64,000 nt of DNA from Solirubrobacter pauli. Lineage in GTDB: Bacteria; Actinomycetota; Thermoleophilia; Solirubrobacterales; Solirubrobacteraceae. Every line of letters begins with the position of its first letter. Position 1 is the first letter of the stretch. Below, piece by piece: positions 52,176-56,536 of the stretch. The stretch is taken from contig NZ_RBIL01000001.1 in NCBI RefSeq assembly GCF_003633755.1, positions 2,217,426-2,281,425 of the forward strand, in the 5' to 3' direction. The notes beneath the pieces are model-generated. The model had not been told where the DNA came from. It did no database searches and saw nothing but the letters and a program-made list of their open reading frames with translations. The position numbers and the translations under genes are program-made.

Positions 52176-52250
<75 letters not shown>

Positions 52251-52253
52251 TCA

Positions 52254-52284
52254 GAAGAAGGCCCGCCACCGGCGGGCCTTCTTC
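52254..52284. terminator. Hairpin terminator between tRNA-Ala(CGC) and the deformylase gene
   Basis: GAAGAAGGCCCGCC (52254-52267) and GGCGGGCCTTCTTC (52271-52284) pair perfectly over 14 bp with loop ACC. TTCTTC then GTTCTC gives a partial U tract on the plus strand, and GAAGAA on the other strand serves the convergent deformylase gene. Confidence 0.85.
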
Positions 52285-52288
52285 GTTC

Positions 52289-53464
52289 TCAGCGGCGGCG
52301 CTTGCCGGCTTTGCCGCGGCTCGGCGGTGGCGGTCCGCCGGCGTCGGCGAGGATCGACGCGAGCGCCTCGTCGGCGGCCGCGGGGCCCGAGACGGGCGTC
52401 AGCGCGGCGTCGGGGGCGGCGCGGTCGGTGAACAGCACGCCGTCCAGGTGGTCGATCTCGTGCTGCGCGATCCGGGCGAGGTAGCCGTCGAGCTCCAGGT
52501 CGACGGGTTCGCCGTCGAGCGAGTGGTTGCGGACCTTGACGGCGCTGGGGCGCTCGACCTCGGCCCGCCAGCCCGGCAGGCTGAGGCAGCCCTCGGCCAT
52601 CGTCGACGTCTCGTCGGAGCGGTCGATGATCTCCGGGTCGCGCAGCAGCAACGGCGGGTTGACGCGGTCGTCGACCGCCGCCATGCGGATGCCGAGCCCG
52701 ACCTGCGGCGCGGCGAGGCCGACCCCGCCCTGCTCGTACTGCTCGCGCAGCAGCCCGGCCGCGAGGGCGCGGACGAGGTTCGGGTGCAGGTCCGGGCCGA
52801 CCGGGTGCGCGGCGCCGCGGACGACGATCGGGGCCAGCGCCCAGGCCTCCGGATCGAAGGTCGCGATCGCGACGGGCTCGATCCGGCGCGCCGCGGGCGG
52901 CTCCTCGGCGTACAGCGAGGCCAGCGCCTGCTCCGCGCGCGCGTCCGCGAGAACGGTCCGGCCGACCGGCTGGGCGCCCTCATGGTCGAGGAAGAGCGTG
53001 CCGTCGAGGATCTCGATCTCGTGCTGGAGCACGCGCGCGTGCCAGTCGTGGAACGTCTGCGTCCGCTCGTCGCCGTTGAGCGTCTGCCAGCGCACGGTGA
53101 CCGACCGTGGCCGGCGGACGTCGGCACGGACGTCCGGAAGGCACAGGTTCCCCTCCGGCCCCGTCTCCTGCTCGCCCGACGTCTCCTCGATCACGGGGTT
53201 GAACAGCGCGGCGACCTGGTCGTCGATCGCGGTGACGACGATCCGCAATCCGAGCCCGGCCATCGGCGCCGCGAGGCCCGCGCCGACCGGGCCGCGGAAC
53301 AACGCGCCGGCCAGCCCGCCGGCGAGGCGGACCCGCAGCTCGCGCGAGGTCGTGTCGAAGTCGACCGGCGCGGCGGGCCTGCGCAGCGCGTGGCCGGGGA
53401 GGCGGAGTGCGCGCACGCTGGTGCGCAGCAGCGTGAGCGGAACCGGCGTCGGGGCGGAGGGCAC
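52289..53464 (-). CDS. def: Two-domain peptide deformylase with a degenerate first domain
   Basis: 391 aa, about twice normal length. The C-terminal domain (about 195-360) has all three deformylase motifs: GVGLAAPQVG, EGCLSLPG and QHEIDHLDG, so it should remove formyl from new proteins using Fe or Zn. The N-terminal domain (about 30-175) has the same fold pattern, but its motifs read GAGLAAPMAG, EGNLCLP and QHEIEILDG. It has thus lost the Gln, the Cys metal ligand and the second His. It is probably catalytically dead and structural or regulatory. GTG 53464 follows a TACCGT box by exactly 7 nt. Upstream frame to 54160 is not used. Confidence 0.9.
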   Translation of the reverse strand: MPSAPTPVPLTLLRTSVRALRLPGHALRRPAAPVDFDTTSRELRVRLAGGLAGALFRGPVGAGLAAPMAGLGLRIVVTAIDDQVAALFNPVIEETSGEQETGPEGNLCLPDVRADVRRPRSVTVRWQTLNGDERTQTFHDWHARVLQHEIEILDGTLFLDHEGAQPVGRTVLADARAEQALASLYAEEPPAARRIEPVAIATFDPEAWALAPIVVRGAAHPVGPDLHPNLVRALAAGLLREQYEQGGVGLAAPQVGLGIRMAAVDDRVNPPLLLRDPEIIDRSDETSTMAEGCLSLPGWRAEVERPSAVKVRNHSLDGEPVDLELDGYLARIAQHEIDHLDGVLFTDRAAPDAALTPVSGPAAADEALASILADAGGPPPPSRGKAGKRRR

Positions 53465-53477: not shown

Positions 53478-53507
53478 CCGGCTGACTTCTCAGTCCGCCA
53501 ACGGGCG

Positions 53508-53524: not shown

Positions 53525-54067
53525 ATGCTTGGAGACGTGATTCGGCGCCGTTGTGACGAGTTGGGGCTGTCTCAGTCCGCTTTGGCGGACCAAGTGGGCG
53601 TGCACGTGCGGCAGATCCGGCGCTACGAGCGCGGTGAGCAGCAGCCGGTGCTGGGCGTGGCGGCGAAGCTCGCCGAGACGCTCGGGGTCACGCTGGACGA
53701 GCTGGCCGGCGTGGGCGAGAGCCCGCTCGACGGCGACTGGTGGAGCGCACGGCAGGTCGCGGTGGACGGCCGGGCGTTGATCGCGACCGTCCCGGTGACG
53801 CTGCGGCGGCGGGCGCCGGACGTGCTCGCGGTGGAGGGCCGCGGCTGGCGCGGAGAGCTGCGCGTGTGGGACGAGGGCACGCTCACCGGCTGGTACGTGG
53901 GCGCGGGGCCGCCCGGGACGATGCTGTTCGTCCTGGACGCTGACAGCACACTTGCACGGGGCCGGTGGGTGGCGAGGGCGGTGGACGGCTCCGTGACGGG
54001 CGGGCATGCGGCGCTCGCTCGCACGCGCGAGGCGGCGTCCGCGGCTGTACCACGCCCGTCGGACTGA
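53525..54067 (+). CDS. XRE-family transcriptional regulator with C-terminal domain
   Basis: 180 aa. A helix-turn-helix of the Cro/C1 type spans residues about 4-60 (LGLSQSALADQVGVHVRQIRRYERGEQQP). The rest (65-165) is a beta-rich domain with LIATVPVTLRRRAPDVLAVEG and GWRGELRVWDEGTLTGWYVG that could sense a ligand. The start may instead be TTG 53519, adding two residues. It is divergent from the deformylase gene and precedes the surface protein and signal peptidase pair; it may control either, but that is only position. Confidence 0.8.
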   Translation: MLGDVIRRRCDELGLSQSALADQVGVHVRQIRRYERGEQQPVLGVAAKLAETLGVTLDELAGVGESPLDGDWWSARQVAVDGRALIATVPVTLRRRAPDVLAVEGRGWRGELRVWDEGTLTGWYVGAGPPGTMLFVLDADSTLARGRWVARAVDGSVTGGHAALARTREAASAAVPRPSD

Positions 54068-54147: not shown

Positions 54148-54792
54148 GTGCCCGTGTCAAGGCTCTCCAACTTCATCCCCCGCCCCCGTCTTGCTGCCTG
54201 GCTCGCGTTCGGCGCGACGGGCCTGGCCACCGGCGCCGTCTGGGCGACCGGCTTCGCCACGGTCTCGGCCGGCAACGGCACCACCGGCGGTTCCCCCGCG
54301 CTGACCAAGACCGACGCCGTCGACGACGCCACGGCGCTCAGCACGACGGCGTCCCCCGTCAGCCCGATCGTCTTCGACTGGGACGGCCGCTGGGGCAAGG
54401 TCACCGCGCCCAAGGTCATGTTCAAGGTCGACCTGTCGGACCCCAAGTTCGCCGATCCCAAGCGTTACAACGTCGCGATCCTGCTCACGAACGTGACCGC
54501 TTTGACCGGCTGGGCCACGCTTCAGCTCGAGCTCGAGCACGTCGAAAAGGCCGCGGGCGGCACCTGCGCCGCCGCCGACTTCGACGGGACGAAGGACCCG
54601 AAGCTCCTGAACGTCGACAACCAGGACGCCGGCGTGTACTGGAACACCCTCGAGGGCGAGAAGGTCCACTGCTTCGGCATCGGCGTCACGCCGTCCCCGG
54701 TCGACTACTCGACCACCTTCCTGCGTTCCGCCCAGGACACCCCGCCGTCCGTCTTCCCGTCGTTCGTCGCGACGGTCGACCGCGCCCTGTAG
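54148..54792 (+). CDS. Putative SipW substrate: secreted TasA/camelysin-like protein
   Basis: 214 aa with a GTG start and AAAGGA ribosome site. The N-terminal stretch (residues 18-42, LAAWLAFGATGLATGAVWATGFATVSAG) looks like the SipW-type signal peptide. The rest is soluble and beta-rich with two Cys (GGTCAA, VHCFG). It has no close family that I can name. The next gene encodes a signal peptidase of the SipW type 13 nt downstream, the usual arrangement for TasA-like fibre or coat proteins. Assignment rests mostly on this pairing. Confidence 0.6.
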   Translation: MPVSRLSNFIPRPRLAAWLAFGATGLATGAVWATGFATVSAGNGTTGGSPALTKTDAVDDATALSTTASPVSPIVFDWDGRWGKVTAPKVMFKVDLSDPKFADPKRYNVAILLTNVTALTGWATLQLELEHVEKAAGGTCAAADFDGTKDPKLLNVDNQDAGVYWNTLEGEKVHCFGIGVTPSPVDYSTTFLRSAQDTPPSVFPSFVATVDRAL

Positions 54793-54805: not shown

Positions 54806-56536
54806 ATGCCGCCGACCCATCTCCTCGCAGCGCCCGGCCTCATGGCCGGGCCGACACACCGGCGCGCCGCGCGCGTCGGCGTGGTCAGGCGGGAGCGGGC
54901 CGGCGGCTTTCCTCGTTGGCTCGCCGCCGTCGTACTGATCGTCGCCGTCGCCGGCGGCCTCACGTTCCTCGGGACGTGGCCGCCGCTCGCGACGGTGATG
55001 TCGGCCTCGATGGCGCCGACGATCAACACCGGCGACGTCGTCGTGCTCCAGCGGCTCCATGCGCCCGCCAAGGTCGGCGACGTCGTCATGGTGCACGTGC
55101 CCGACGAGGCCCGCAGCCGCTACGGCTACCCACCCGTGGTGATCCACCGCGTGGCGAAGGTCGCCGCCGACGGCGCGATCACCACCAAGGGCGACGCGAA
55201 GAAGGAGGTCGACCCCTTCACCGTGCCGCGCTCGGCGGTCACCACCCGCGTCCTCACGCACATCCCCGCCGCCGGTCGCGTCTTCAGCTTCCTCGGCAGC
55301 ACCCTCGGCCTGATCTGGATGGCCGGCGGTGCCGTGATGCTGCTCGTCATGCCGCTGCTGGAGCGTTACCGCGACACCCAGCGCACCATGGGCGCGGAGC
55401 GCGAGCTCGTCCTCGACGAGCTGCGCGTCCAGGTCGAGCTGCTCCCGCGCCAGATCGAACGCGCCGTGGCCAACGCGGTCGCGGCGATCGAGCCGCCCGC
55501 GGTCCAGGCGGCGCCGACCGAGCGCCCCGTCGCGACGACCGAGCCCCGCGCGAACACCCTGTTCGCCACCCCGGACGACGCGAACGCGACGCCGTCCCCG
55601 CGCATCGTCGCGGCCGCCAAGCTCGCCGCCGTCGCGGCCACCCGGCTCGCGCCGCCGCCGGCCCCGTCCGCGCCCGACGTACCCGCCCCGCGACTCACGC
55701 CCACCGCGCCCGCGTTCACGCCGTCTGTCCCGGCCCGGTACGACGCGCCGCCGGCACCGGCCGCGCCGGTGACGCCGCTCGCGCGCATCGCGTTCGCGGC
55801 GCCCGCGTTCACGCCGGCGGTCCCCACCCACTACACCGCTGCGCCGGCCCCGTCCGCCCCGATGGCGCCGTCCTCGCGCATCGCGTTCGCGGCGCCCGCG
55901 TTCAGGCTGGCCCTCGCCGCGCCGACGCACGCCGCCCCGGCGCCGTCCGTCCCGGCGACGCCGCCCGCGCCCATCGCGTTCGCCGCGCCCGGGTTCGCGC
56001 TGGCCGTGCCCGCGCAGGCGCAGGCCGCGCAGGCGCCCGCCGCCCCCGAGGCGCCGCTCTCGCGGGGTCGCTTCAGCCCCGGCGCGTTCGTGCCGATGGT
56101 GCAGGTGAAGCCCCTCGCCGTTCCCGCGCCGCCGACGCCCGCCAGGCCGACGCCGCGGCTCGGTGCCGTTTCCGCCTTCGAACCCTCCATCGACGGACTC
56201 TCCTTCTTCGCCATGCCCGCACCCGCCGCGCCCGCTGCTCCGGCCCCTCGCCTGACGGCCGCCTCGACCTTCACGCCGCCGACCGTCGCCCGCACCCCGC
56301 TGGCGCCGCCGCCGGCCCCGGTCGCCCGGCTCGCCGCCGCTTCGACGTTCATGCCCGTGCTGACGACCACGCCGGTCACGCTGCCGGCTCCGCCCGCACC
56401 CCCGACGCCCGCGCCGCGGCTGCTCGCCGCGTCCGCCTTCCCGCCCGGGTTCACGACCGTGCCGGCCGTCACGTCCGCCCCGCCCGCGCCCGGCGCGCGG
56501 TTCTCGCGGCTCGTGCCCGCCACGCAGCGGACGTAG
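54806..56536 (+). CDS. SipW-like signal peptidase I (S26B) with a long Pro/Ala-rich tail
   Basis: 576 aa. N-terminal helix at about residues 38-58. The catalytic Ser is in MSASMAPTINTGDVVV and the general base is a His in VVIHRVAKV, which defines the Ser-His S26B (archaeal, ER and SipW) branch instead of Ser-Lys LepB. ITTKGDAKKEVDPF is the conserved domain-E-like motif. A second helix (GLIWMAGGAVMLLVMPLL) lies at about 172-190. The remaining ~370 aa are low-complexity, with repeats like PAP..RIAFAAPAFTPAVP and PRLxAASxFxP. The peptidase part alone is normal length. It cleaves the upstream gene's product by inference. Confidence 0.85.
   Translation: MPPTHLLAAPGLMAGPTHRRAARVGVVRRERAGGFPRWLAAVVLIVAVAGGLTFLGTWPPLATVMSASMAPTINTGDVVVLQRLHAPAKVGDVVMVHVPDEARSRYGYPPVVIHRVAKVAADGAITTKGDAKKEVDPFTVPRSAVTTRVLTHIPAAGRVFSFLGSTLGLIWMAGGAVMLLVMPLLERYRDTQRTMGAERELVLDELRVQVELLPRQIERAVANAVAAIEPPAVQAAPTERPVATTEPRANTLFATPDDANATPSPRIVAAAKLAAVAATRLAPPPAPSAPDVPAPRLTPTAPAFTPSVPARYDAPPAPAAPVTPLARIAFAAPAFTPAVPTHYTAAPAPSAPMAPSSRIAFAAPAFRLALAAPTHAAPAPSVPATPPAPIAFAAPGFALAVPAQAQAAQAPAAPEAPLSRGRFSPGAFVPMVQVKPLAVPAPPTPARPTPRLGAVSAFEPSIDGLSFFAMPAPAAPAAPAPRLTAASTFTPPTVARTPLAPPPAPVARLAAASTFMPVLTTTPVTLPAPPAPPTPAPRLLAASAFPPGFTTVPAVTSAPPAPGARFSRLVPATQRT

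What the first reader, a model, noticed from the sequence alone, without database searches (positions are those of the whole stretch)
52289..53464. Peptide deformylase fused to an inactive deformylase domain
Two deformylase-like domains lie in one 391-aa ORF. The second has all three motifs intact. The first keeps the fold pattern and the His-Glu pair but has lost the Gln (APM), the Cys ligand (EGN) and the second His (EIEI). Bacterial deformylases are normally single-domain, so the dead copy may regulate the live one, dock to the ribosome or form a dimer-like shape within one chain.
Basis: partly seen in the sequence, partly recalled or inferred. Interest (0 to 1): 0.8.

Follow-up and report, generated by a model that had tools for sequence, protein, structure and literature searches.

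The report
Deformylase fused to dead deformylase twin
Some Solirubrobacter soil bacteria carry an extra peptide deformylase (the enzyme that trims the formyl cap off new proteins) in which a normal catalytic domain follows a second copy that has lost its metal-binding residues; selection has kept the dead copy, but its job is unknown.

Summary
One minus-strand ORF (53464..52289, 391 aa, GTG start) holds two PF01327 domains. The C-terminal domain has all canonical motifs (GVGLAAPQ / EGCLSLP / HEIDHLDG). The N-terminal one reads GAGLAAPM / EGNLCLP / HEIEILDG, so Gln50, Cys90 and His136 (E. coli numbering) are lost.

It is not an assembly artefact. Two other Solirubrobacter species carry the same two-domain protein (88% and 67% identity), with all three substitutions identical. 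Domain 1 is as conserved as domain 2 (dN/dS about 0.2 for both in the closest pair). A frameshifted relic in another genus of the family keeps the signature M / EGNLCLP / HELELLDG.

The gene is a third, accessory PDF beside a priA-def-fmt housekeeping PDF and another single-domain PDF. In two other Solirubrobacter genomes it is absent from this exact spot, between a tRNA-Ala and a divergent XRE-type regulator.

Searches of family, order, class and phylum genomes, phages and plasmids found no other such tandem. No paper or PDB entry describing one was found.

I read it as a lineage-restricted enzyme-pseudoenzyme tandem: domain 2 deformylates, domain 1 is a retained non-catalytic scaffold or docking module. 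Domain 1's role is inference.

The parts
52289..53464 (-). Two-domain peptide deformylase gene, 391 aa, GTG start (start inferred: protein conservation with orthologues begins there)
52982..53404 (-). Domain 1, PF01327 match, catalytically degenerate (residues ~21-161)
   Evidence: E 2.6e-28; modelled as a PDF fold, core pLDDT >90
53261..53284 (-). Domain 1 motif I GAGLAAPM (Gln50 equivalent is Met)
   Evidence: sequence; invariant in 3 orthologues, GVGLAATM in relic
53135..53155 (-). Domain 1 motif II EGNLCLP (Cys90 ligand equivalent is Asn; Ser92 is Cys)
   Evidence: sequence; invariant in 4 of 4
53000..53023 (-). Domain 1 motif III HEIEILDG (His136 ligand equivalent is Ile)
   Evidence: sequence; invariant in 3, HELELLDG in relic
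52847..52981 (-). Linker with predicted helix (residues ~162-206)
   Evidence: faster-evolving: 51% identity to S. taibaiensis against 75/70% in the domains
52412..52816 (-). Domain 2, PF01327 match, canonical deformylase domain, predicted active (residues ~217-351)
   Evidence: E 1.4e-36
52703..52726 (-). Domain 2 motif I GVGLAAPQ
   Evidence: sequence
52574..52594 (-). Domain 2 motif II EGCLSLP
   Evidence: sequence
52439..52462 (-). Domain 2 motif III HEIDHLDG
   Evidence: sequence
52292..52312 (-). Basic C-terminal tail KAGKRRR, basic in all three orthologues (KAGKRRR / KAGKRRR / KPKRRR)
53525..54067 (+). Divergent XRE/HTH_3 regulator gene, 60 bp from the deformylase start; divergent neighbour in all three tandem-bearing species
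52176..52249 (+). tRNA-Ala (CGC), convergent neighbour
52254..52284 (.). GC-rich inverted repeat, likely shared bidirectional terminator of tRNA-Ala and the deformylase gene
   Evidence: read from sequence

Best explanation
This is an accessory peptide deformylase made of an active PDF domain (C-terminal) and a pseudo-deformylase domain (N-terminal) in one chain. Shown: both domains are PDF-like; domain 1 lacks two of three metal ligands and the catalytic Gln; domain 2 keeps every catalytic motif; the fusion and the exact dead-site substitutions are conserved across three species and both domains are under purifying selection; the gene is additional to the housekeeping def beside fmt. Inferred: domain 2 does all the deformylation, and domain 1 is a non-catalytic module whose emptied metal pocket is filled by Met and Ile/Leu side chains. 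Domain 1 would act as a structural partner or docking surface that positions domain 2, perhaps at the ribosome together with the basic C-terminal tail. Expression may be set by the divergent XRE regulator.
For: Two PF01327 matches. Motifs in three species. Selection: in the closest pair NG86 dN/dS 0.196 (dom1) and 0.221 (dom2); amino-acid identity 0.90/0.90, and 0.75/0.70 in the more distant pair. A relic in another genus keeps Met, Asn and Leu at the three lost positions. Domain 1 modelled with 42 aligned rows has pLDDT 80.5 and matches PDF structures at Z about 23. Housekeeping def sits in a priA-def-fmt neighbourhood (L002). Genus members without the tandem still have one or two single PDFs.
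Against: No activity, structure or expression data. The domain-1 model was made with PDF sequences in its alignment, so its fold match is partly circular (the sequence match at E 2.6e-28 is independent). The full-length model is unusable, so the domain arrangement is unknown. XRE also occurs without the deformylase in G001 and G006, which weakens the idea of a dedicated regulator. The gene is missing in four of seven genus genomes, so it is dispensable.
Confidence: 0.55

Rival explanations
1. Domain 1 is an evolving relic of a duplication: it is needed only so that the chain folds, as an N-terminal cap for domain 2, and has no separate function.
For: Domain 1 is more similar to domain 2 (42% identity) than to the other PDFs compared (34-40%); the AU test does not reject one clade for both domains (p 0.21 and 0.37); the C-terminal extensions of the two domains look alike in two of three species (shuffle p 0.011, 0.002, 0.48).
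Against: Domain 1 is as conserved as domain 2, with invariant runs such as FHDWHARVLQHEIEILDG through the dead site; a purely structural cap would not need the pocket region to be so conserved.
Confidence: 0.25
2. Domain 1 binds a ligand without cutting it (a formyl-peptide or a PDF inhibitor such as actinonin) and so senses or sequesters it.
For: Domain 1 keeps residues that contact peptide in E. coli PDF: Gly45 (G63), Glu88 (E104), Leu91 (L107), Arg97 (R113), Glu133 (E149) by motif register. Accessory PDFs are linked to actinonin resistance (PMC12690207).
Against: Hydroxamate inhibitors need the metal, which domain 1 should not hold. Domain 2 has Arg at position 97 (R300), not the Tyr that lowers actinonin susceptibility in Vibrio (PMC12690207). 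In the relic the Arg97 position is His.
Confidence: 0.12
3. Domain 1 is an enzyme with altered chemistry that uses a different metal site (for instance C108, H148 and E149).
For: C108, H148 and E149 are present in all four sequences.
Against: C108 sits two residues from the ligand position and no other substitute ligand is shared with the relic (H139 is Ala there, and the H142 stretch is deleted); the lost Gln and His are replaced by Met and Ile/Leu, which looks like packing, not chemistry.
Confidence: 0.05
4. Assembly or annotation artefact joining two genes.
For: None found.
Against: Same ORF with identical motifs in independent assemblies of S. phytolaccae and S. taibaiensis.
Confidence: 0.01

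Closest known systems
Peptide deformylase (PF01327; TIGR00079, NF001159), single-domain bacterial PDF
   Same: Domain 2 has all motifs; both domains match the family well above cut-off.
   Different: Two family domains in one chain, the first without metal ligands Cys90/His136 and without Gln50. All PDB chains listed are 147-212 residues long.
Type 3 / inactive accessory PDFs of S. aureus and S. pneumoniae (as reported in PMC12690207, citing Margolis et al. 2000, 2001)
   Same: Accessory PDF copies with substitutions in conserved motifs and reduced or no activity.
   Different: Those are separate proteins with substitutions in motifs I and II; here the dead copy is fused in cis to a live one and also lost the motif III ligand.
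def-fmt fusion of Exiguobacterium (PMC12690207)
   Same: A PDF domain fused to another domain in one gene, shown functional there.
   Different: The partner there is methionyl-tRNA formyltransferase, not a second PDF domain.
Accessory PDFs conferring reduced actinonin susceptibility (Vibrio Def2, integron PDFs; PMC12690207)
   Same: Extra PDF gene beside a housekeeping one.
   Different: Arg97 is kept in domain 2 (R300); not on a recognised mobile element; two-domain.

Membership tests
Peptide deformylase, domain 2 | PF01327 match above the curated cut-off | tested here: met
   127.6 bits against cut-off 22.8
Peptide deformylase, domain 2 | Motifs I (GxGxAAxQ), II (EGCLS), III (HExxH) | tested here: met
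   GVGLAAPQ, EGCLSLP, HEIDHLDG; motif definitions from PMC12690207
Peptide deformylase, domain 2 | Deformylase activity | not testable with these tools
   Needs enzyme assay
Peptide deformylase, domain 1 | PF01327 match above the curated cut-off | tested here: met
   100.7 bits
Peptide deformylase, domain 1 | PDF fold | tested here: met
   Model pLDDT 80.5; Foldseek and VIA-align best matches are PDFs, Z about 23 over 145 residues; the model was built with PDF rows
Peptide deformylase, domain 1 | Metal ligands Cys, His, His and catalytic Gln | tested here: not met
   Met, Asn, Ile replace Gln50, Cys90, His136 in 3 of 3 species; Met, Asn, Leu in the relic
Accessory PDF (extra copy beside housekeeping def) | A separate housekeeping def next to fmt in the same genome | tested here: met
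   L002 lies between priA- and fmt-like ORFs (read from translations); a further single PDF at L001
Actinonin-resistant accessory PDF | Arg97 to Tyr | tested here: not met
   R300 at that position by motif register
Mobile-element PDF | Location on a plasmid, phage or integron | tested here: inconclusive
   Contig of 4.26 Mb, no plasmid or phage record covers the tandem; the gene is an exact presence/absence beside a tRNA, but no integrase search was made

The most novel reading that the evidence does not exclude
A cis enzyme-pseudoenzyme pair in N-terminal protein processing, in which the dead deformylase domain still binds nascent formyl-peptides or the ribosomal exit site and controls the live domain's substrate choice or timing.
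Probability: 0.2. Interest if true: 0.65.

Novelty: new variant of a known kind. Interest (0 to 1): 0.42.

Why it matters
PDF is essential in most bacteria and an antibiotic target, and it is known as a single-domain enzyme that works alone. A selected, lineage-specific fusion to its own dead copy would add a natural example of pseudoenzyme evolution in cis. It also gives a clean test bed (three orthologues, related strains lacking the gene at the same site) for what a non-catalytic deformylase fold can do.

Tried and rejected
Artefact or frameshift: rejected (three assemblies). Standalone relatives of domain 1: the domain-1 profile over 232 order genomes and 396 phylum genomes found none; the weaker hits checked carry canonical motifs. 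Other tandems: two-domain profile over 146 family, 396 phylum and 399 class genomes found only the three species and the relic. One genome-contig scan found the same two species, but it used only two short peptide patterns. PF01327 over 246 phylum genomes listed only the best ~150 matches, so it cannot exclude weaker tandems. Plasmids and phages: no record covers 80% of the protein. Internal duplication against two separate origins: unresolved, long branches. Full-length AlphaFold with 3 rows: pLDDT 37, discarded. A first viral-contig scan was given a wrong reading frame and found nothing. Literature searches for tandem, pseudoenzyme or fused deformylases found nothing relevant.

Full report
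Observation. The ORF lies on the minus strand, 53464..52289, 391 residues. Pfam finds Pep_deformylase twice; in the genome search the two domains score E 2.6e-28 and 1.4e-36 as separate places. In E. coli numbering (register set by the motifs), Gln50 is Met68, Cys90 is Asn106, His136 is Ile152, while His132 (H148), Glu133 (E149), Glu88 (E104) and Arg97 (R113) are kept. Domain 2 has every catalytic motif. That Cys90, His132 and His136 hold the metal and that Gln50 and Glu133 assist catalysis is established knowledge of PDFs (my own knowledge; motif definitions in PMC12690207).

Relatives. The window's genome holds two further PDFs, both single-domain and canonical: L002, between priA-like and fmt-like ORFs and so the housekeeping def, and L001. 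Among seven genomes of the genus, three carry the tandem (the window; G003, matching Solirubrobacter phytolaccae KCTC 29190, 88%; G004, matching S. taibaiensis KCTC 29222, 67%), and four do not. All three have exactly GAGLAAPM, EGNLCLP and HEIEILDG in domain 1. A fourth sequence, in another genus of the family (G079, at a contig end), is broken by a frameshift in domain 1 and lacks motifs II and III in the remains of domain 2. Its domain 1 still reads GVGLAATM, EGNLCLP, HELELLDG, 44% identical to the window's. The three substitutions are therefore older than the split of these sequences, or moved between them, and have been held.

Distribution. Profiles of the whole protein and of domain 1 found nothing else in 146 family, 232 order, 399 class and 396 phylum genomes (samples for class and phylum), nor in plasmid or phage records. 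These searches would see relatives of this tandem; an unrelated PDF tandem with weaker similarity could have been missed.

Selection. Codon comparisons give NG86 dN/dS of 0.20 for domain 1 and 0.22 for domain 2 between the window and S. phytolaccae. Protein identity is 90/90% in that pair and 75/70% against S. taibaiensis; linker and tail are much less conserved in the distant pair. The dead domain is therefore maintained about as strictly as the live one.

Origin. Domain 1's best match among the PDFs compared is domain 2 (42% identity), and the C-terminal helical extensions resemble each other in two of three species. Both hint at an internal duplication. The trees leave both on long separate branches, and an AU test neither supports nor rejects one clade (p 0.21, 0.37). 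Duplication is likely but not shown.

Site. In G001 and G006 the neighbourhood aligns up to the end of tRNA-Ala (52248) and resumes at 53502, with 64 bp in place of about 1250: a precise presence/absence of this one gene. The divergent XRE regulator is present in all three tandem-bearing species, and also in G001 and G006 without the deformylase. It may regulate the deformylase, but not only it. GC content (76%, GC3 96%) fits the native genome.

Structure. A model of domain 1 with 42 aligned rows has pLDDT 80.5 (core above 90), and all listed best matches are PDF structures, Z about 23. Because PDF rows were in the alignment this confirms compatibility rather than discovering the fold. The full-length model failed, so nothing can be said about how the domains sit together.

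Mechanism. Shown: an accessory chain with one predicted active and one degenerate PDF domain, both under selection. Inferred: domain 2 deformylates; domain 1, whose pocket is likely filled by Met68 and Ile152 (Met and Leu in the relic), is a non-catalytic partner, either a cap/scaffold or a docking surface. PDF normally docks to ribosomal protein L22 by its C-terminal helix (PMC8712518). Here the chain ends in a basic KRRR-type tail conserved in all three species, which is compatible with ribosome contact but not evidence of it. Resistance to actinonin is not suggested by domain 2, which keeps Arg97.

Novelty. Inactive accessory PDFs and one PDF fusion (def-fmt) are known (PMC12690207). A fusion of an active PDF to a dead PDF domain was not found in the papers or structures searched. 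I file it as a new variant of a known kind, of moderate interest, confined to a few species.

Noticed in passing
54806-56536 (+): Weak signal peptidase (Peptidase_S26) match in the N-terminal part, followed by a long Ala/Pro-rich tail with repeats such as RIAFAAPAFTPAVPTHY; it follows a secreted-looking ORF without a Pfam match (54148-54792), resembling a TasA/SipW-like pair.
   Followed up: no
52254-52284: Strong GC-rich inverted repeat between the convergent tRNA-Ala and deformylase genes, probably a shared bidirectional terminator.
   Followed up: partly
L046/L048 (genome G079), around 1501-2409 of L046: Frameshifted relic of the tandem in another genus of the family, with domain 2 eroded, beside an unrelated ORF rather than an XRE gene.
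   Followed up: yes
53525-54067 and G001/G006/G002 homologues (L068, L069, L070): XRE-type regulator with an uncharacterised C-terminal half (WWSARQVAVDGRALIATVPVTLRR...) present with and without the deformylase; a second, about 55% identical paralogue in some genus members.
   Followed up: partly
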